DNA of 36,808 nucleotides. It comes from Deltaproteobacteria bacterium. Its GTDB lineage: Bacteria; SZUA-79; Acidulodesulfobacterales; Acidulodesulfobacteraceae. This document shows, one piece after another, positions 9,777 to 32,435 of the stretch. Positions within the stretch are counted from its first letter, which is position 1. Each line of letters opens with the position of its first letter. Position numbers and translations under genes: made by a program. Below the pieces are notes generated by a model. It saw nothing but the letters and a program-made list of their open reading frames with translations. It was not told the origin of the DNA and searched no databases. Where the stretch lies: NCBI GenBank assembly GCA_023489335.1, contig JAMDCP010000019.1, forward strand, positions 1 to 36,808, read 5' to 3'.

Positions 9777-10259
9777 ATGAATTTTTCTTTTAAATTATCC
9801 GAAATTAAAGATGTCGTTATTAAAGATATTCAAAAACATATCGACGAGAGGGGCTGGCTTGCCGAACTATACAGGAGCGACGAGATAGATGATTCAATCT
9901 TTCCGCAGATGGCCTATGTTTCTTTAACGATGCAAGGCGTTAAAAGAGGGCCGCATGAACATGTTTACCAGACGGATTATTTTTGTTTTTTAGGTCCCTC
10001 CGATTTCAAGATTATATTATGGGATAATAGAAAAGATTCGCCGACATATCTCAATAAAATGATATTATTTCTTGGCGAGAATAGGCCTGCCGCGCTTATC
10101 GTTCCGCCCGGCATTGTCCACGCCTATAAAAATGTGGGCGGGAAAAACGGTTTAGTTATTAATGCCGCAAATAAACTGTATGCCGGAAAAATGAAAAAAG
10201 AGCGGGCAGATGAGATAAGGCATGAAAATGATGCCCTTACCGCCTTTGTTTTTGATTAA
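9777..10259 (+). CDS. RmlC-like sugar-nucleotide epimerase (cupin)
   Basis: This 160-residue cupin resembles dTDP-4-dehydrorhamnose 3,5-epimerase. Landmarks are DERGWLAELYRSDE near the start, the GVKRGPHEH segment that replaces the usual RGLHxQ catalytic histidine region, WDNRKDSPTY, and PPGIVHAYKNVG late in the fold. It is shorter than typical RmlC (about 180 residues). Related short cupins act on other dTDP-sugars or only bind them, so the exact substrate is unclear. No rmlA, rmlB or rmlD is adjacent. The next gene starts 10 bases after its stop, so the two are probably co-transcribed. Confidence 0.65.
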   Translation: MNFSFKLSEIKDVVIKDIQKHIDERGWLAELYRSDEIDDSIFPQMAYVSLTMQGVKRGPHEHVYQTDYFCFLGPSDFKIILWDNRKDSPTYLNKMILFLGENRPAALIVPPGIVHAYKNVGGKNGLVINAANKLYAGKMKKERADEIRHENDALTAFVFD

Positions 10260-10269
10260 TTTAAAAAAA

Positions 10270-10653
10270 ATGAAATTCATACATTCTGCAATAAGGACAA
10301 ACGATTTAAACAAGTCTATCGATTTTTACGCTAAATTTTTTGGCTTTGCCGTAAGGGAAAAAAGATATATAGAGGCTCATAAAACCACCTTAGTTTTCTT
10401 AAAAGATTTAAAAACAGGCTTCGAAATCGAACTTATAACCGAAGATAACCCAAAACAACTTAAGCTATGCGAAAATTCCTTTGCTCATTTTGCATTTCAA
10501 ACGGATGATATTGACGGGGATGCCTGCAAAATGAAAAAAGACGGTGCGGTTTTTTCAAGAGACCCTTTTTATTCGATGGATAAGAGCATGAAAATTGCTT
10601 TCCTGAACGATCCAAACGGGATCATGATAGAGCTTATAGAGTATTTGAAATAA
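10270..10653 (+). CDS. Glyoxalase/VOC-family metalloprotein
   Basis: A single vicinal-oxygen-chelate domain of 127 residues. It starts MKFIHSAIRTNDLNKSIDFY, the standard first beta-alpha unit with a possible metal ligand at His5. Later come FEIELITEDN (metal Glu region), SFAHFAFQTDDIDG (second histidine) and FLNDPNGIMIELIEY (final Glu). This set matches lactoylglutathione lyase (GloA)-like proteins. The start at 10270 was chosen over an ATG at 10222 because the fold starts directly there and the longer form would overlap the cupin gene. The substrate cannot be told from sequence; methylglyoxal detoxification is one possibility. Confidence 0.8.
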   Translation: MKFIHSAIRTNDLNKSIDFYAKFFGFAVREKRYIEAHKTTLVFLKDLKTGFEIELITEDNPKQLKLCENSFAHFAFQTDDIDGDACKMKKDGAVFSRDPFYSMDKSMKIAFLNDPNGIMIELIEYLK

Positions 10654-10654
10654 T

Positions 10655-10687
10655 CCCGCCCATCCTTTCTTTGTTAAAGGCGGGCGG
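10655..10687. terminator. Hairpin after the VOC gene
   Basis: CCGCCC (10656-10661) pairs with GGGCGG (10682-10687), and CCTTT (10664-10668) pairs with AAAGG (10676-10680) inside it. It starts just after the VOC stop codon and lies between it and the oppositely oriented peptide-gene remnant, so it could end transcription from both sides. T-runs are weak. Confidence 0.6.
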
Positions 10688-10695
10688 AATAAAGC

Positions 10696-10710
10696 GGCGC
10701 TAACTGCGCC
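10696..10710 (-). promoter_or_regulatory. SECIS-like hairpin of the truncated peptide gene
   Basis: On the minus strand GGCGC (10710-10706) pairs with GCGCC (10700-10696) around the loop AGTTA. The loop begins 20 bases after the in-frame TGA (10727-10725). Position and size match the hairpin of the intact copy, but every stem base pair differs from it. That is expected if structure rather than sequence is kept, though only two copies are compared. Whether SelB would bind this loop is unknown. Confidence 0.5.
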
Positions 10711-10806
10711 TATTTGCAGGACTTTCAGAAATAGCACGAATCCTTAATCCCGTAACCTTCCATAATTAAACTGTAAAATTCTTCGGCGGGGATTTCCTGA
10801 AATAGC
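10710..10806 (-). pseudogene. 5'-truncated second copy of the selenopeptide precursor
   Basis: Bases 10722-10806 match 13695-13779, the precursor gene, over 85 positions with one mismatch. The shared frame begins LFQEIPAEEFYSLIMEG, continues YGIKDSCYF, then an in-frame TGA (10727-10725), then KSCK and a TAG stop. The first eight leader residues and the Shine-Dalgarno sequence of the intact gene are gone. Upstream, the same frame stays open for some 35 more codons, back to about 10911, without an ATG; that stretch (for example PEYFPLSHLPLFYFDHRY) is not recognised. The remnant may be dead, or may start from a non-standard codon. The region 10654-11029 holds no other gene I can support. Confidence 0.7.
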
Positions 10807-11029
10807 AAATTTCTACTTGGAACATACCTGTGATCAAAATAAAATAAAGGAAGGTGTGATAGCGGAAAATATTCAGGCAAGTAATAAAATATATACTTGT
10901 GTTACTTACAATATTTTTGAGTAATGGCTCAATAATTTAGAAAATTAAAAATAAAATTAAACATATCCTCTGTATTTTGAAGGGTTTGTTTGAATTAAAT
11001 GCTATCCAAAAACTTATCTAAAAATCTAA

Positions 11030-13486
11030 TTATTTTTTATTAATAATAAAATTTTCAGCTATTTTTTTAATTATTAATTTTGTAAAATTAAAATCATTCC
11101 ATTGAGCTTTTTTTTCAAAATCATTAATTTTTTCTGGAAATAAAATATATGAAATCAAAATTGGGGTAAATGAAAAAATTCCGTTCAGTTCATTTATTAA
11201 ATCATTTATATTTTCCAGAACTCTTAATGCCTCATCTTTGCAATTTTTGGCAATAAGATTCAGACCCAAAGCCTCTGAAGCTAATAAAATTCCAGATTTA
11301 TAACCTATGTTTTTATTGGATTCTATTGCTCTTTTTGCGATTTCAATGCCCAAGTCTGGGTCAGAAAAAGCCAGTGCAATTGATTGCGATATTAAACCTC
11401 TATTCATTTGAATCGGTTCATTTAATTGTTTGCTACGTTCTATTGCATATTTTGAAAATTTTAGAGATCTGGATTGATTTGTAAAACGTAACGACTCAGC
11501 CATACAATTGAGAACAACATTTTCTTTATTATAGAGTGAATTAATTGATTTACACACTTGCAATGCCTCCATAAAATATTTTTTGGCATTAAAAAAGTCA
11601 AAATTATAACAGTAAATATCACCTTCCAGCATTAACTTTCTTAATTTTTCATCTTGATTTAAATTTTGAATATTCCCCATATTGTTTAATGAATCCTTAA
11701 AATTACCCTTTAAGGATAAAATTACAGAAATCCTTTCGAAACTCCTATCTTTAATTTCTGCGTCATTGTTATTGGTAATAGAAATGCCAGAAAGCTCTCT
11801 ATAGATGTCCAAACTTGTATCATAATTGCCAAGCAATTGATTGCAAAAACCAATATAAAAAAGATTATGATATTTCCATTCCCCCATACCTTTATCGTTT
11901 AAACTTTTAAATATACTTAAGGCCTTTTCCAAATCTTCACCCATAAATAGACAAGTTGCATATAAAAAATTTAAAAAATTATTTGAAGAAATAATCTCGC
12001 TTCCAAGATTATTGATACCTTTTCCAACATCTTTTCCGTATCCTTCGAAAATAAGTTTATGTCCTATTTCTACTATTATAGTAACATGACCCGGTTTAAT
12101 ATCGGATATTCCGAACTTTTGAAGAAAAGTGAGGCTCTGTTGATATATCCAGTTAGTTCTGTTTTTTTGATTTTCATAATAAAGTTCCTTAGAATATTCA
12201 ATCAAAGTAGAAAAAATCTTATATGCAGTTTCCTTTTCTATTTCTCTGTTTAAAAAACTTCTTATGGTATCATGAATCTTAAAAATTTTATTTTGCTCAT
12301 CTATTGCTATTGCAAAAGATGCTTCACAAAAATCGTTAAAACAGGTATAAGGAATATTAATATTTAGCTCTTTGGCGAATTTAAGGAACAATTCTATATC
12401 GAACTGCTCTAGTGATGCCATTATTTTAAGCGCTTCCGCTTCATCTTTATCAAGATAGTTCATAAAATTTCTTATAACATCATTTTGGGCAAGTTTAAAA
12501 TTTTCGGGAGAAATATTCTTGCCTTCCTGCTCTAGACTCATATAAATTCCGACACATAAGTCCAAATATAATGGCAAACCCTGAGAAACATCAATAATTG
12601 CTTTCTTTATTAAAACATCGTTTATTGGCACTCTGGAAAGAAAATAATCTACATCTGTCTCTGATAGCCCGCCTAAAATATGTTGTTCTAAGAAGCCTGA
12701 CCATTCCCCGTTTAAATCTGCCCATTTTAAATACTCCCTGCCCGCAATTACATACAAACCATTTTCAGCTGAGCCTATTAATTCTCTCAACCATTCATCT
12801 TCTGGTGAATTTTTATCTATTAGTTTATCAATAGAATCTATAAAAAAGATAAAATATTGATTATGGTAGTTATTTTCTATTGTTTTCCCAAGATAGTAAG
12901 GGAGTTTTTTTTCTAATTCTTTCTCTGTTAGGGCATTTATTTCATTAATAAATTTTTTATTACCGCCTAATCTCACGTATAGGCTTTCTTTTCCCCATGA
13001 AAGTAATTTATAAGAAAGTTTGACCGGAGCAAAAATACCGAATAATTGAGCGATAAAACCAACTATATCAAACAATATGCTATTTTCATTAAACTTATAA
13101 TTTTTTAAATCTGAAATCGGTCTTTTGGTTATCAGAAAATAGCGGCTCATTGCATATTCAAATTCTTTGGAGCAAATTTTAAGTTGTGCGTAAATATTTA
13201 AAAGATAATCAGCAGGATTTTTAAAAGCGGAAATATCAAGATTTATATTAACAATGGTAATATTAAGATGGGTTTTTTTATTTTCTTCTATTGCATAATT
13301 TTTAAGTTCTTTTAATAAAGATGTTTTTCCAATTCCTCCAATCCCATAATAGACGAGAATATTTAATTTCTTTTTTTTATTCTTATAGTCATCGAATGCT
13401 TTAAGAAAGATTTTCTTTGACTCATCTCTATCGGTAAATTCTTTTGTTGCTTTAATGTTGCTTAAAGTTTTTATTTTACTCAGCAT
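11030..13486 (-). CDS. STAND-type NTPase with C-terminal helical repeats
   Basis: The 818-residue protein has a P-loop GIGGIGKTS at about 48-56, a Walker B strand FIFFIDSID at about 213-220 and the STAND-typical GLPL motif at about 303-306, followed by a winged-helix-like region (about 330-420). The remainder (about 430-800) is an array of helical hairpins resembling TPR repeats, for example KALSIFKSLNDKGMGEWKYH and FFNAKKYFMEALQVCKS. STAND proteins are signalling switches, many of them phage sensors whose repeat region binds a trigger. No obvious effector domain is fused at either end: the protein opens directly with the FTDRDES segment before the P-loop. Base use is AT-rich relative to neighbours, and direct repeats flank it, consistent with acquisition by transfer. 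Confidence 0.8.
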   Translation of the reverse strand: MLSKIKTLSNIKATKEFTDRDESKKIFLKAFDDYKNKKKKLNILVYYGIGGIGKTSLLKELKNYAIEENKKTHLNITIVNINLDISAFKNPADYLLNIYAQLKICSKEFEYAMSRYFLITKRPISDLKNYKFNENSILFDIVGFIAQLFGIFAPVKLSYKLLSWGKESLYVRLGGNKKFINEINALTEKELEKKLPYYLGKTIENNYHNQYFIFFIDSIDKLIDKNSPEDEWLRELIGSAENGLYVIAGREYLKWADLNGEWSGFLEQHILGGLSETDVDYFLSRVPINDVLIKKAIIDVSQGLPLYLDLCVGIYMSLEQEGKNISPENFKLAQNDVIRNFMNYLDKDEAEALKIMASLEQFDIELFLKFAKELNINIPYTCFNDFCEASFAIAIDEQNKIFKIHDTIRSFLNREIEKETAYKIFSTLIEYSKELYYENQKNRTNWIYQQSLTFLQKFGISDIKPGHVTIIVEIGHKLIFEGYGKDVGKGINNLGSEIISSNNFLNFLYATCLFMGEDLEKALSIFKSLNDKGMGEWKYHNLFYIGFCNQLLGNYDTSLDIYRELSGISITNNNDAEIKDRSFERISVILSLKGNFKDSLNNMGNIQNLNQDEKLRKLMLEGDIYCYNFDFFNAKKYFMEALQVCKSINSLYNKENVVLNCMAESLRFTNQSRSLKFSKYAIERSKQLNEPIQMNRGLISQSIALAFSDPDLGIEIAKRAIESNKNIGYKSGILLASEALGLNLIAKNCKDEALRVLENINDLINELNGIFSFTPILISYILFPEKINDFEKKAQWNDFNFTKLIIKKIAENFIINKK

Positions 13487-13608
13487 AATAAAATTAACTT
13501 ATTTCAATATATTTTGCATCACACATCTCAATATAACCTAATTAAGAATAAAAATAGAGATATTAATTAAGCCTATATTCCTAAATTTATCAAAAATTTA
13601 TTAAAATA

Positions 13609-13642
13609 AAATATCTCCCTATTCTTAAATAGGGAGATATTT
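13609..13642 (-). terminator. Strong hairpin terminator after the selenopeptide gene
   Basis: A perfect 15-bp stem (13609-13623 with 13628-13642) around the tetraloop CTTA. On the minus strand it is followed by a T-rich tract. It lies about 40 bases past the precursor stop codon, closing the radical SAM-PqqD-precursor unit before the STAND gene. Confidence 0.85.
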
Positions 13643-13661
13643 AAGAACACAAGCTTTTTTT

Positions 13662-13678
13662 ATGTGCAACCTGCACAT
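13662..13678 (-). promoter_or_regulatory. Candidate SECIS element of the selenopeptide gene
   Basis: On the minus strand ATGTGC (13678-13673) pairs with GCACAT (13667-13662) around the loop AGGTT. The loop starts 26 bases after the UGA at 13700-13698. Bacterial SECIS elements place a short hairpin with G and U in the loop at roughly this distance. The E. coli fdhF element has GCAGGUCUGC at its apex, close to GCAGGUUGC here. The hairpin overlaps no other coding sequence and is separate from the terminator. Confidence 0.7.
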
Positions 13679-13679
13679 T

Positions 13680-13802
13680 TCATTTTTTGCATTCCTTTCA
13701 GGAATAGCACGAATCCTTAATCCCGTAACCTTCCATAATTAAACTGTAAAATTCTTCGGCGGGGATTTCCTGAAATAGCGGGGCTTCATAAATCTTTTTC
13801 AT
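13680..13802 (-). CDS. Selenocysteine-containing RiPP precursor peptide
   Basis: AAGGAGG sits 8 bases before the ATG, the best ribosome binding site in the window. The frame encodes a leader starting MKKIYEAPLFQEIPAEEF, a style common in radical-SAM RiPP precursors, then YSLIMEGYGIKDSCYS, an in-frame TGA (codon 35), KECKK and a TGA stop. If codon 35 is selenocysteine the peptide has 40 residues and a core Cys32-x-x-Sec35-x-x-Cys38. Support for readthrough: a SECIS-type hairpin downstream, a second copy keeping Sec-Lys-x-Cys-Lys, and selA and selD in the same window. If the TGA were a real stop, a 34-residue peptide ending CYS would result. It lies 63 bases after the PqqD-like gene, in the same direction. 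The product is unknown. Confidence 0.72.
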
Positions 13803-13865
13803 AAATTTCACCTCCTTAGTTTGGTTTTTTGGTTATAGTTGAGTTATGTCAAGCTGTTTTATAAT

Positions 13866-14150
13866 TTATATACTTGAAATATACCGCCTTGCCGAAAGGA
13901 GCTGTATTAAATCGTTAAAATCTTTTGCCGCCTCTTCCCTGCCGGCATTAAAAGTATTCGTTATGTTTTTTATTATATCCTCATCCGTGTTTTTTCCGTC
14001 GCACAACGATAAAATTTTATACGATACCTCATTTAATTTATAAATATCTCCATTCAGGTTATCAAAAAGCATATAATTTTTCCCATCCTGTTTTATGCTT
14101 ATATTATCCGCAAGTTTTAATATTCGAACTTGCGCGGGCGGTTGACTCAT
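13866..14150 (-). CDS. PqqD-like RiPP recognition element protein
   Basis: A 94-residue protein of the PqqD fold: beta strands (VRILKLADNISIKQDGKNYMLFD) followed by a winged-helix part with NLNGDIYKLNEVSYKILSLCDGKNT, EDIIKNITNTF and a final helix DFNDLIQLLSARRYI. Such domains bind the leader of a ribosomally made peptide and present it to a radical SAM enzyme. An AGGGAG ribosome binding site precedes the ATG. It lies between the radical SAM/SPASM gene and the tiny precursor gene, all on the minus strand. The partner peptide is almost certainly the one 63 bases downstream. Confidence 0.85.
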   Translation of the reverse strand: MSQPPAQVRILKLADNISIKQDGKNYMLFDNLNGDIYKLNEVSYKILSLCDGKNTDEDIIKNITNTFNAGREEAAKDFNDLIQLLSARRYISSI

Positions 14151-14198
14151 TTATTCTCCCTTTCCTTTAATTATTATTTTCAATTCTTGCTTTTAATT

Positions 14199-14243
14199 CC
14201 CCTTTTTTAAAAGGGGTGTCATTTTGCCTGAAGGCAAAATGAC
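14199..14243. repeat. Two adjacent inverted repeats between maturase and carrier genes
   Basis: CCCCTTTT/AAAAGGGG (14199-14216) and an 11-bp perfect stem GTCATTTTGCC/GGCAAAATGAC around TGAA (14218-14243) stand side by side in the 120-bp gap between the radical SAM and PqqD-like genes. They could attenuate transcription or protect the mRNA end, or be a small palindromic repeat element. Confidence 0.7.
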
Positions 14244-14270
14244 GGGGTATTTATAATTAAACATTTCAAC

Positions 14271-15287
14271 TCATATCCAGCATTGCGGATCTTTTGTATT
14301 TAAATCTCCGTTATGGTAATAACTTATAGCCTTGCACCCGCCGCACCTTTCGATATGCGGGCAATTCGAACATTCGTTTTCGTCCGTCCTTTTTCTCATT
14401 TGCCATAAAATTTCGGAGTTATACCACACCTTAAAAAACCCGTCGGATAAAATATTGCCGAGCGGCAAATAAAGTCTCCTGCACGGCAGCAAAGTGCCGT
14501 CATGCAGAACGCATATGGAAGAAAGCCCGACAGGGCAGTAACCGCCGCAGTTTTCGTCTACAAGGTTCCACAGCGGCCTCGATGTGGCAAGTTTAGTGCT
14601 TTTATTAAAAAACTCCTTTTTTGCTTTATAATAGACATCCGAATAAATCCTTTTTAATTCCTGAGCCCCGATAAAAAATTCCTCTTTTTCAGTCTCGCTC
14701 ATGGCCGTCATTCGTTCGACGGTCAGGGCATCCGCATTCAAAGAAGAGGCCAATTCCGGCATATTTACGGCAGATTCTTTGTTTTTTTTATGAAGGGTGA
14801 ACATTATAGATGTTTTAATACCGGCGTTTTTAAGTTTTTTGACGGATTCCGCCGCTTTTAAAAAGGTTCCCTTCCCCCTTATTTTATCGTGCGTTTTTTC
14901 GTTATGTCCATCTAAAGAAATTTGAATTTCCGAAATCTTTTTATATTTTTTTATTTCGTTAACCATATTATCATCGATTAATGTGCCGTTGGTTAATATT
15001 GCGATATTCTTAAAATTATCCGATTCTTCGATTAAGCTTGCCAGGTAAAAAAGGCCGTCCGGCCTTAGAAACGGTTCCCCGCCCGTTAATGAAATAAAGC
15101 ATTTCGTTTTCCATTTAGACATAGCCTCGTCGATTTTAAAAAAAATTGACCCCAACAGGTTTAGGTCTATATCTTTATGGTTATAATTATTTTGATAACA
15201 ATGGATGCATCTTAAATTGCAGGATTCAATAAAATGCCATTGGACATAAAACTCATTATTCCGGTTTTGATTATTATACGCATCCAT
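14271..15287 (-). CDS. Radical SAM/SPASM peptide maturase
   Basis: The 338-residue enzyme has the radical SAM cluster motif CNLRCIHC (Cys23, Cys27, Cys30) and a SAM-binding GGEP at 69-72. Its SPASM domain begins near 245 with Cys247, Cys251, Cys259 and Cys269, and continues with CSNCPHIERCGGC (Cys306-Cys318) and Cys336 in DPQCWI. These ligate two auxiliary [4Fe-4S] clusters. Proteins of this type modify ribosomal peptides, for example forming thioether or carbon-carbon links at cysteine or other side chains. The PqqD-like carrier and the selenocysteine peptide downstream are the likely partners. The start ATG has no Shine-Dalgarno sequence, but a good promoter lies just upstream. The modification made cannot be read from the sequence. 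Confidence 0.88.
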   Translation of the reverse strand: MDAYNNQNRNNEFYVQWHFIESCNLRCIHCYQNNYNHKDIDLNLLGSIFFKIDEAMSKWKTKCFISLTGGEPFLRPDGLFYLASLIEESDNFKNIAILTNGTLIDDNMVNEIKKYKKISEIQISLDGHNEKTHDKIRGKGTFLKAAESVKKLKNAGIKTSIMFTLHKKNKESAVNMPELASSLNADALTVERMTAMSETEKEEFFIGAQELKRIYSDVYYKAKKEFFNKSTKLATSRPLWNLVDENCGGYCPVGLSSICVLHDGTLLPCRRLYLPLGNILSDGFFKVWYNSEILWQMRKRTDENECSNCPHIERCGGCKAISYYHNGDLNTKDPQCWI

Positions 15288-25950: not shown

Positions 25951-27408
25951 ATGGAACATAATAAAAATGAAATATTAAGGAAATTTCCGGGCGTCTATGA
26001 AATCCTTGAAAATAAGGATGTTGAATTGCTTAGCAAGGATTTTTCTTATAATTTTGTAAAAGAAAGGCTTAATGCTTTAATAAAACAGGAAAAAGATAAT
26101 GTTTTAAATCTTTTAAACACGGAAACCGCGGAAGCCGGAAATTTAGGTGAGGAAAGATTTAGAGTTGAATATTTTGTCGGCAGGCTTAAAAATGATTTAA
26201 ATAATTTTTCTTTTAGTTTAAAAAGAGTTGTCAATGGGACGGGCGTCGTTATCCATACAAATTTAGGGCGTTCCATTTTGCCGGAAAGGGCAGTTAAAAA
26301 TGTTGCGCAAATATCGTCATCCTATTCAAATTTAGAATTTAGTTTGACGGAGGGTAAAAGGGGCAAAAGATATTCGCATGTAGAATATCTACTTCAAAAA
26401 ATTTTAAAATGCGAAAAGGCTATCGTCGTGAATAATAATGCAGCCGCTGTTTTTATGGCGCTGTCATCATTTTGCGCGGAACAAAAGAAGGAAGTAATAG
26501 TTTCAAGAGGGGAACTTATCGAAATTGGCGGGTCGTTTAGAATACCCGACATAATGAAAGCTTCGGGTGCTGCTTTAGTGGAAGTCGGTACGACAAATAA
26601 GACAAAGCCTTCGGATTATGAAAAAAACATAAATGAAAACACCGCTCTTTTATTAAAAGTGCATCATAGCAATTTTAGAATGAGGGGTTTTGTCGGCGAG
26701 CTATCGAGCAAAGATCTTGTTTCCATTGGTAGAAACTACCATATACCAGTTATGGAAGACCTGGGTTCGGGCAGTTTTGTGGGTATTGAAAGATTTGGGC
26801 TGCCTCACGAACCCACTGCCCAGGAGGTTGTTAACGCAGGCGTGGATATTATCACATTTAGCGGTGATAAACTGCTGGGGGGGCCTCAGGCAGGGATAAT
26901 AGCGGGAAAAAAAGAGTATGTGGATTTAATTGCATCGAATCCCTTAAACAGGGCATTTAGAATAGATAAAATGACGCTTGCCGCGCTTGAAGCCGTCCTC
27001 TTCGAATATTTAGATATAGAAACCGCGGTGAAAAGGATACCCACACTTTTTTTTCTTTCGCAAAGCGGAGAAGACATTAAAAGAAAAGCATTCAGGCTTT
27101 TAAATAAAATTAAAAAACTTGAATACGCAAATAAAAATATATATAATTTTAAGGTAGTAGAGGATTTGAGCATCGTTGGAGGCGGAGCTTTGCCGGACTA
27201 CGAACTCAAAACATATTCCATAAGCATTGCCCATAAAACATTAAGCGCCGATAAATTAAGCCGGATTTTTCGCAGCTTTCGTGTTCCGATTATTGGAAAA
27301 ATAAAAAATGAAGAGTTTTTAATTGATGTTAGAACCGTGCTCGAAACAGATTTTAAAGATATAATTCAGGCGTTAAAATCTATCCCGGACAGGGAATATG
27401 AATATTAA
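25951..27408 (+). CDS. selA: L-seryl-tRNA(Sec) selenium transferase SelA
   Basis: SelA converts Ser-tRNA(Sec) to selenocysteinyl-tRNA(Sec) using selenophosphate. The PLP lysine is Lys307 in TFSGDKLLGGPQAGII. Other family motifs are VVNGTGVVIHTNLGRS, NNNAAAVFMAL, VSRGELIEIGGSFRIPDIM and LLKVHHSNFRMRGFVGE. The 485-residue length covers the whole family, including the N-terminal tRNA-binding helices. With selD in the same window this shows the organism makes selenocysteine. selB and tRNA(Sec) genes are not seen here. Confidence 0.97.
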   Translation: MEHNKNEILRKFPGVYEILENKDVELLSKDFSYNFVKERLNALIKQEKDNVLNLLNTETAEAGNLGEERFRVEYFVGRLKNDLNNFSFSLKRVVNGTGVVIHTNLGRSILPERAVKNVAQISSSYSNLEFSLTEGKRGKRYSHVEYLLQKILKCEKAIVVNNNAAAVFMALSSFCAEQKKEVIVSRGELIEIGGSFRIPDIMKASGAALVEVGTTNKTKPSDYEKNINENTALLLKVHHSNFRMRGFVGELSSKDLVSIGRNYHIPVMEDLGSGSFVGIERFGLPHEPTAQEVVNAGVDIITFSGDKLLGGPQAGIIAGKKEYVDLIASNPLNRAFRIDKMTLAALEAVLFEYLDIETAVKRIPTLFFLSQSGEDIKRKAFRLLNKIKKLEYANKNIYNFKVVEDLSIVGGGALPDYELKTYSISIAHKTLSADKLSRIFRSFRVPIIGKIKNEEFLIDVRTVLETDFKDIIQALKSIPDREYEY

Positions 27409-31362: not shown

Positions 31363-31379
31363 TACGCTAATAAATAAAT

Positions 31380-32435
31380 ATGACAGCAAAAAAATATAAA
31401 CTTACAAGTTTGGCAAGCGCCCACGGCTGAGGATGCAAGATAGGTCCGGAGGACCTCTCGAAGATTCTCGAAAAATTGCCTGTTCCAAAAAACGATAATG
31501 TTTTGGTTGGATTTGAGTATAAAGATGATGCGGGTGTTTATAAAATAAGCAATGATTCCTGTCTTATTCAAACAGTTGATTTTTTTACGCCTGTGGTGGA
31601 CGACCCTTATACTTTTGGCCAGATTGCTGCCGCAAATGCGCTTTCGGATGTCTATGCCATGGGAGGAAAGCCGATAACGGCTTTAAATATTGCCTGTTTT
31701 CCGGTTAAGGAAACAGAAAAAAAAGTTTTTAACCTTATACTTCTTGGCGGTTTGGATAAGATAAACGAGGCAGGGGCAGCGCTTTTAGGCGGCCACTCGA
31801 TAGACGACAAAGAGCTTAAATACGGGCTTAGCGTTACGGGGGTTTGCAATATAAATGAAATCTATTCTAATAAAGGAGCAAGTCCCGGAGATATTTTATA
31901 TTTAACAAAAAGCCTTGGAACGGGGTTTGTTGTCAGCGCTATTTGTACGGATTTTTTAAGCGCGGATTCGCTGAACGAAGCCTCTTTATCTATGTCAAAG
32001 CTTAATAAAAGGGCTTCCGAGATTGCCGTTTCTTTAAAATCGCCAAACGCTCTTACGGATGTTACAGGTTTCGGACTCATTGGGCATTTAAGCGAGATGA
32101 TGCTCGCAAGCGGCGCCGCTTGCGAGGTTGATTTATCCTCCCTGCCTGCCATAAACGGGGTATATGAATTAATAAGGAAAGGGATAAACCCGGCAGGGAC
32201 CAAGCGAAACAGAAAATATTTTTCAAAATATGTATCTACCTCGAAAAATGTTGATGAAAATTTACTATGGTTAGCTTTTGGCGCAGAGACTTCGGGCGGA
32301 CTTGTGATGCCGGTTCCCGAATCAAAATCGGACGCGCTGGAACTTGCTTTTAAAAACGCCGAAGAGCCGCTGCGCAGGATAGGTAAAGTATTGCAAAAAG
32401 AGCATGATAAAGGTACCCTTATTTATTTGTTTTAA
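31380..32435 (+). CDS. selD: Selenophosphate synthase SelD, itself a selenoprotein (Sec17)
   Basis: SelD makes selenophosphate from selenide and ATP. The frame starts at ATG 31380 (MTAKKYKLTSLASAHG), reads through TGA at 31428-31430 and continues GCKIGPEDL. The Sec is residue 17 and Lys20 follows, matching Cys17 and Lys20 of E. coli SelD. Later motifs are LVGFEYKDDAGVY, TVDFFTPVVDDPYTFGQIAA, AMGGKPITALNIACFPV, LLGGHSIDDKELKYGLSVTG, TDVTGFGLIGHLSEM and AETSGGL. Without decoding of the TGA a gene finder would start at a TTG (31476) and lose the catalytic residues. The 351-residue product has normal length. It closes the mla gene run; the RACo-like gene starts 6 bases later. Confidence 0.95.
31442..31456 (+). 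promoter_or_regulatory. SECIS element in selD
   Basis: AGGTCC (31442-31447) pairs with GGACCT (31451-31456) around GGA; two more pairs continue outward after a mismatch. The loop begins 18 bases after the TGA, in the window used by bacterial SECIS elements. It lies within the coding sequence, as usual for bacteria. Confidence 0.8.

What the first reader, a model, noticed from the sequence alone, without database searches (positions are those of the whole stretch)
10696..10806. Second peptide-gene copy keeps UGA, Sec-x-x-Cys and a differently built hairpin
The copy shares an 85-bp block with one mismatch, then diverges after the UGA. The residues after the UGA change (Glu to Ser) but Lys36, Cys38 and Lys39 are kept. 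The downstream hairpin has a completely different stem (GGCGC/GCGCC rather than ATGTGC/GCACAT) at a similar distance. Preserved structure with changed sequence is what a functional SECIS would show.
Basis: partly seen in the sequence, partly recalled or inferred. Interest (0 to 1): 0.8.

Follow-up and report, generated by a model that had tools for sequence, protein, structure and literature searches.

The report
Truncated second copy of selenocysteine peptide gene
The stretch is a leftover tail of a duplicated small gene whose intact copy nearby very probably encodes a short selenocysteine-containing peptide with its own modifying enzyme; comparing 36 gene copies from 27 related genomes shows that the RNA hairpin goes with the selenocysteine codon, as a real insertion signal should.

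Summary
The hairpin interpretation is right for the gene family, but copy 2 is not a complete gene. On the minus strand, copy 1 (13680-13802) is a 40-codon gene with a ribosome-binding site, MKKIYEAPLFQEIPAEEFYSLIMEGYGIKDSCYS-U-KECKK. It follows a PqqD-type RRE and a radical SAM/SPASM enzyme, so it is a RiPP precursor with a Cys-x2-Sec-x2-Cys core. Homologues occur in 27 of 30 genomes of Ca. Acidulodesulfobacterales (SZUA-79). Of 36 copies, 26 have UGA and 10 have Cys at that site. The published bacterial SECIS rules are met by 25/26 UGA copies and 2/10 Cys copies, and stem pairs covary. A covariance model built without this genome finds exactly these two sites in it. selA, a UGA-containing selD, selB and tRNA-Sec are present. 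Copy 2 starts at codon 9, with no in-frame ATG or GTG and no Shine-Dalgarno site, and has Ser34 changed to Phe. Its 3' flank matches the single gene of a sister species. It is most likely the original gene's 3' end, displaced when AT-rich DNA carrying a STAND NTPase entered the gene and supplied a new 3' end and hairpin. A selenocysteine RiPP is known (SbtA/SbtM); this family is a new variant.

The parts
10722..10805 (-). Copy 2: 3' two-thirds (from codon 9) of the peptide gene, 84 bp identical to copy 1 but for one base (Ser34 to Phe); no in-frame ATG/GTG or Shine-Dalgarno upstream
10725..10727 (-). UGA of copy 2, followed by Lys-Ser-Cys-Lys-TAG (10724-10710)
   Evidence: sequence
10696..10710 (-). 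SECIS-like hairpin of copy 2, GGCGC-AGTTA-GCGCC
13680..13802 (-). Copy 1: intact 40-codon RiPP precursor gene with in-frame UGA, MKKIYEAPLFQEIPAEEFYSLIMEGYGIKDSCYSUKECKK
13809..13817 (-). Shine-Dalgarno AAGGAGGTG of copy 1
   Evidence: sequence
13698..13700 (-). UGA (Sec) codon of copy 1
13662..13678 (-). SECIS-like hairpin of copy 1, ATGTGC-AGGTT-GCACAT, just past the stop codon
13609..13642 (-). Separate terminator-like hairpin with T run downstream of copy 1; not the SECIS
13866..14150 (-). PqqD-family peptide chaperone (RRE), PF05402
   Evidence: 48.3 bits, cut-off 23.4
14271..15287 (-). Radical SAM/SPASM peptide maturase, 338 aa
11030..13486 (-). STAND-like NTPase with TPR repeats in the inserted segment; found in no other genome of the family
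10807..13694 (.). Inserted AT-rich segment (27.6% GC; window 35%) between the two peptide-gene copies; absent from sister genomes
25951..27408 (+). selA
   Evidence: 565.9 bits, cut-off 267.9
31374..32435 (+). selD with in-frame UGA at 31428-31430 (SAHGUGCK) and its own hairpin AGGTCC-GGA-GGACCT; positive control for UGA decoding

Best explanation
The intact gene (copy 1) encodes a selenocysteine-containing RiPP precursor. SelB carrying Sec-tRNA binds the hairpin just past the end of the reading frame and decodes UGA as Sec in the core Cys-x2-Sec-x2-Cys. The PqqD-type RRE protein presents the leader to the neighbouring radical SAM/SPASM enzyme, which modifies the core. Copy 2, the stretch in the finding, is the displaced 3' end of the original resident gene. 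Foreign DNA with a STAND NTPase recombined into the gene inside the conserved 84-bp block, bringing a replacement 3' end and hairpin. Copy 1 was thereby completed, and copy 2 was left with a UGA and hairpin but no start. Shown: gene order, conservation past UGA, UGA/Cys exchange, covariation, coupling of hairpin to UGA, Sec machinery, flank collinearity. Inferred: actual Sec insertion, chemistry of the modification, and the recombination route.
For: 36 copies with the motif in 27 genomes; UGA in 26, TGC/TGT in 10, at the same position. After UGA, all 26 have Lys or Arg and 25 have Cys, with synonymous changes (AAA/AAG, TGC/TGT). bSECIS rules as given in PMC13188914 (I relaxed its energy limit and applied it to the hairpin alone) are met by 25/26 UGA and 2/10 Cys copies. 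Covariation score 0.391 against 0.176 (sd 0.033) in shuffles, 0/500, and far above slid registers (also 75). A model built without this genome finds only these two sites. SelA, SelD (itself with UGA in 30/30 genomes), SelB and tRNA-Sec are present. rSAM-PqqD-peptide order is conserved; 17 of 18 copies directly after PqqD have UGA. Distant rSAM relatives in Lachnospiraceae and Hydrogenedens have the same order and a peptide with a WCFGCTNC core, with Cys where Sec stands. Copy 2: no in-frame ATG/GTG before a stop; its flank is collinear with G002 for 1.08 kb at 89.6%; the segment between copies is unique to this genome and AT-rich.
Against: No proteomic or selenium-labelling data. The sequences are related, so copy counts overstate independent events (about five or six losses of Sec). 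The selD hairpin of these genomes has a different apical loop (GGA) from AG[GU]U, though both meet the rule of a G in the first loop positions. No Rfam SECIS family matched. G002 (97% complete) keeps the UGA peptide but has no related rSAM at 1e-40, so modification is not proven essential. No transporter or peptidase was identified. No integrase lies in the inserted segment, so the insertion route is unknown.
Confidence: 0.85

Rival explanations
1. UGA is an ordinary stop codon and the hairpin is a transcription terminator or other 3' element.
For: The copy 2 hairpin scores as terminator-like with a weak GCTTTATT tail. Single-sequence folding energy of copy 2 is not exceptional (z -0.41).
Against: Conserved Lys-x-Cys-Lys after UGA with synonymous changes, exact Cys replacement at the UGA in ten homologues, hairpin decay in Cys copies, a separate strong terminator downstream of copy 1, and full Sec machinery.
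Confidence: 0.05
2. Copy 2 is a second functional precursor gene, translated from a TTG or an internal ATG, and its hairpin is maintained by selection.
For: UGA, Cys38, Lys39, stop codon and hairpin are intact in copy 2. Several relatives carry two or three complete copies.
Against: No in-frame ATG/GTG or Shine-Dalgarno, loss of the first eight residues, Ser34 changed to Phe (no Phe at this site in any other copy), and truncation exactly where homology to copy 1 stops. The intact hairpin is also expected if the displacement is recent.
Confidence: 0.08
3. The two copies arose by local tandem duplication or unequal crossing-over and later gene conversion, not by entry of foreign DNA.
For: Tandem copies exist in G005, G008 and G023, and G003 seems to hold two copies at a contig break. 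The two G000 copies share bases that differ from G001-G003 in the block.
Against: The segment between copies is found only in G000 among 30 genomes and is 27.6% GC. Copy 1's downstream end does not match the sister species, while copy 2's does.
Confidence: 0.25

Closest known systems
SbtA/SbtM thio(seleno)oxazole RiPPs (TIGR04082; Lewis et al. 2021, as reviewed in PMC11002830)
   Same: Precursor with UGA-encoded Sec followed by a SECIS; radical SAM/SPASM maturase
   Different: SbtM model is 516 positions and only its later part (197-515) matches; our enzyme scores 128 bits against a cut-off of 350 and uses a separate PqqD. No precursor family matched. Core is C-x2-U-x2-C.
GeoRSP and ACGX radical SAM systems (TIGR04303, TIGR04340)
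   Same: Best-scoring maturase families; GeoRSP also has a separate PqqD-like protein (TIGR04302)
   Different: 133 and 129 bits against a cut-off of 400; no precursor family matched
Sactipeptide/ranthipeptide maturases (SkfB 6efn; 5wgg, CteB from my own knowledge)
   Same: SkfB is the best sequence match among solved structures, 5wgg third; Cys-rich core
   Different: Remote; separate RRE protein; Sec in the core; cross-link not shown
Bacterial SECIS elements (model in PMC13188914, also PMC1088965)
   Same: Loop, stem and spacing rules met
   Different: Hairpin lies at or past the stop codon, because Sec is four to six codons from the end; bacterial elements are described as lying in the coding region (PMC1088965)
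Unnamed rSAM-PqqD-peptide cassettes of gut Lachnospiraceae and Hydrogenedens
   Same: Gene order; C-x2-C-x2-C core; 43-47% identical maturase
   Different: Cys in place of Sec

Membership tests
[quoted passage not shown]
   Both copies; 25/26 UGA homologues
Bacterial SECIS element | Covariation of stem pairs | tested here: met
Bacterial SECIS element | Match to a library SECIS model | tested here: not met
   No SECIS family of Rfam reached E 5 in window 10000-15000; I did not check whether Rfam holds a general bacterial SECIS model
Bacterial SECIS element | SelB binding and UGA read-through | not testable with these tools
   Experiment needed
Selenoprotein gene (bacterial) | In-frame UGA conserved, with Cys homologues at the same site | tested here: met
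   26 UGA, 10 Cys
Selenoprotein gene (bacterial) | SelA, SelB, SelD, tRNA-Sec in the genome | tested here: met
Selenoprotein gene (bacterial), copy 2 | Start codon and ribosome-binding site | tested here: not met
Radical SAM RiPP cluster | Short precursor next to RRE and rSAM/SPASM genes, conserved order | tested here: met
SbtM family (TIGR04082) | Score over the curated cut-off | tested here: not met
   128 bits against 350
SbtA/SbtM thio(seleno)oxazole RiPP | Thio- or selenooxazole product | not testable with these tools
   Needs mass spectrometry or NMR
Sactipeptide/ranthipeptide | Thioether (or selenoether) cross-link | not testable with these tools
   Needs mass spectrometry

The most novel reading that the evidence does not exclude
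The selenopeptide gene serves as an integration target. Incoming DNA carries a spare 3' gene end with its own SECIS, so that entry swaps the resident selenocysteine signal for its own while keeping the gene whole, and the radical SAM enzyme acts on Sec itself to form a selenium-containing cross-link or ring.
Probability: 0.15. Interest if true: 0.8.

Novelty: new variant of a known kind. Interest (0 to 1): 0.6.

Why it matters
Selenocysteine RiPPs are represented in what I could search by one studied system. This is a second, apparently unnamed family, found throughout a lineage of uncultivated acid-mine bacteria, with a natural series of Sec and Cys versions of one peptide. It makes testable whether the radical SAM enzyme needs selenium: 21 of 23 UGA-bearing genomes carry the maturase, but only 1 of 4 Cys-only genomes does.

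Tried and rejected
Rfam scan of the region: only sub-threshold PyrR/PyrG leader hits over the downstream terminator, taken as chance. NCBIfam and Pfam for the precursor and its gut relatives: nothing relevant. Viral contigs: only weak rSAM hits, 20-35% identity, not followed. Molybdopterin oxidoreductase Fe4S4 domain (formate dehydrogenase type) as a further UGA control: no in-frame stop in any domain hit. PADLOC: weak AriA match for the NTPase and viperin match for the rSAM, the latter read as general radical SAM similarity. Folding energy of single hairpins: uninformative for copy 2. The first best-stem script preferred overlapping stems in some copies, so I anchored on the loop and applied the published rules. 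Papers on Sec with PqqD and SECIS: none held; Lewis et al. 2021 itself is not held.

Full report
What is there. Two minus-strand stretches share 84 bp with one mismatch: 13778-13695 and 10805-10722. A whole-genome search finds no third copy. Copy 1 is a complete small gene, ATG at 13802, Shine-Dalgarno AAGGAGGTG, reading MKKIYEAPLFQEIPAEEFYSLIMEGYGIKDSCYS-U-KECKK with U at TGA. Directly upstream are a PqqD-family protein (13866-14150) and a radical SAM/SPASM enzyme (14271-15287). That is the layout of a RiPP precursor with its RRE and maturase.

Copy 2 is a remnant. Homology begins at codon 9. Upstream in frame there is no ATG or GTG before TAA at 10904, only TTG without a Shine-Dalgarno site. 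The one mismatch in the block turns Ser34, next to the UGA, into Phe, which no other copy has. UGA, Lys, Cys, Lys and the hairpin remain.

Relatives. A search of 146 genomes finds the peptide in 27 of 30 genomes of the window's own family and no convincing match elsewhere. Named records place the family in SZUA-79 / Ca. Acidulodesulfobacterales (described in PMC6776010). Thirty-six copies carry the core motif: 26 have TGA and 10 have TGC or TGT at the same codon. Behind the TGA the frame is conserved: Lys or Arg in 26/26, Cys in 25/26, with AAA/AAG and TGC/TGT alternating.

The hairpin. A recent review gives the bacterial SECIS rules as a 3-9 nt loop with G in its first two positions, a 4-16 bp stem, 16-37 nt from UGA and a free energy of at most -7.5 kcal/mol (PMC13188914). 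With a looser energy limit applied to the hairpin alone, 25 of 26 UGA copies and 2 of 10 Cys copies qualify. The one UGA failure is an evident pseudogene in G018 with an upstream stop and Cys changed to Tyr. Fisher tests on closely similar counts gave p about 1e-6 to 2e-5, but the copies are related and this overstates the evidence. Nineteen distinct hairpins show 93.9% paired cells, four pairs changed on both sides, and a covariation score no shuffle reached; slid registers fall to 0.11 or less. A covariance model from 17 sequences without this genome gives 42.3 and 41.7 bits for the two copies, and the next hit in 1.8 Mb is 16.6 bits. The model includes sequence as well as structure, so this confirms membership in the family more than structure alone.

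Sec machinery. selA lies in the window (25951-27408), selD at 31374-32435 with its own UGA, selB and tRNA-Sec elsewhere in the genome. SelD carries an in-frame TGA in all 30 genomes, so UGA decoding is ordinary in this lineage. Its loop (GGA) differs from the peptide's (AG[GU]U).

How copy 2 arose. The sister species G002 has one peptide gene. Its 3' flank runs collinear with the window from copy 2 outwards (10806 to 9732) at 89.6% over 1.08 kb, and it ends in KSCK-stop with an AGCGC hairpin, much as copy 2 does. The DNA between the two copies has 27.6% GC against 35% for the window, holds a STAND/TPR NTPase seen in none of the other 29 genomes, and has no counterpart near the peptide gene elsewhere apart from the hairpin itself. 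The simplest account is an insertion within the 84-bp block that supplied a new 3' end (KECKK and the ATGTGC hairpin). The two hairpins therefore probably have separate histories; the contrast between them is not by itself a case of compensatory evolution in place. The route of insertion is unknown; no integrase was seen.

What it does. The core C-x2-U-x2-C matches C-x2-C-x2-C in peptides that follow the same two genes in Lachnospiraceae and Hydrogenedens, whose maturases are 43-47% identical. Seventeen of 18 copies directly after PqqD have UGA. Twenty-one of 23 UGA-bearing genomes have the maturase; one of four Cys-only genomes does. This suggests the enzyme acts on the Sec form, but G002 and G003 keep UGA copies without it. 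Several Cys copies instead follow a DsrE-like protein. The modification is inferred only; oxazole formation as in SbtM (PMC11002830) and a thioether or selenoether cross-link are both open.

Verdict. Observation confirmed. The SECIS reading is well supported for the family; a functional second gene is not. The family is a new variant of selenocysteine-containing radical SAM RiPPs. I found no description of it in the papers held, which do not include most subscription journals.

Noticed in passing
window 31374-32435 (+): selD with in-frame UGA at 31428-31430, read as a stop by the plain ORF list (which starts at 31476); selA at 25951-27408
   Followed up: yes
window 11030-13486 (-): STAND-like NTPase with TPR repeats, absent from 29 related genomes, in AT-rich inserted DNA
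   Followed up: partly
L051 9450 (G002): UGA peptide gene intact with hairpin, but rSAM and PqqD deleted from the locus and no related rSAM in the genome
   Followed up: partly
L079 1-190 and L054 1-308 (G003): Two peptide copies behind differently truncated radical SAM remnants, at contig ends
   Followed up: partly
L053 8094-8180 (G018): Pseudogene copy keeps UGA but has lost the hairpin and the downstream Cys
   Followed up: partly
L063 7878-8544, L071 9898-10502, L055 3006-3696, L062 331-1004: Cys versions of the peptide directly follow a DsrE-like protein with a signal-peptide-like start
   Followed up: partly
L126 5290, L127-L133 about 5270: rSAM-PqqD-peptide cassettes in Lachnospiraceae and Hydrogenedens with a WCFGCTNC core and no library family
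   Followed up: partly
G015:C24:113176-113679: Several partial copies of the SelB C-terminal winged-helix domain in tandem next to selB
   Followed up: no
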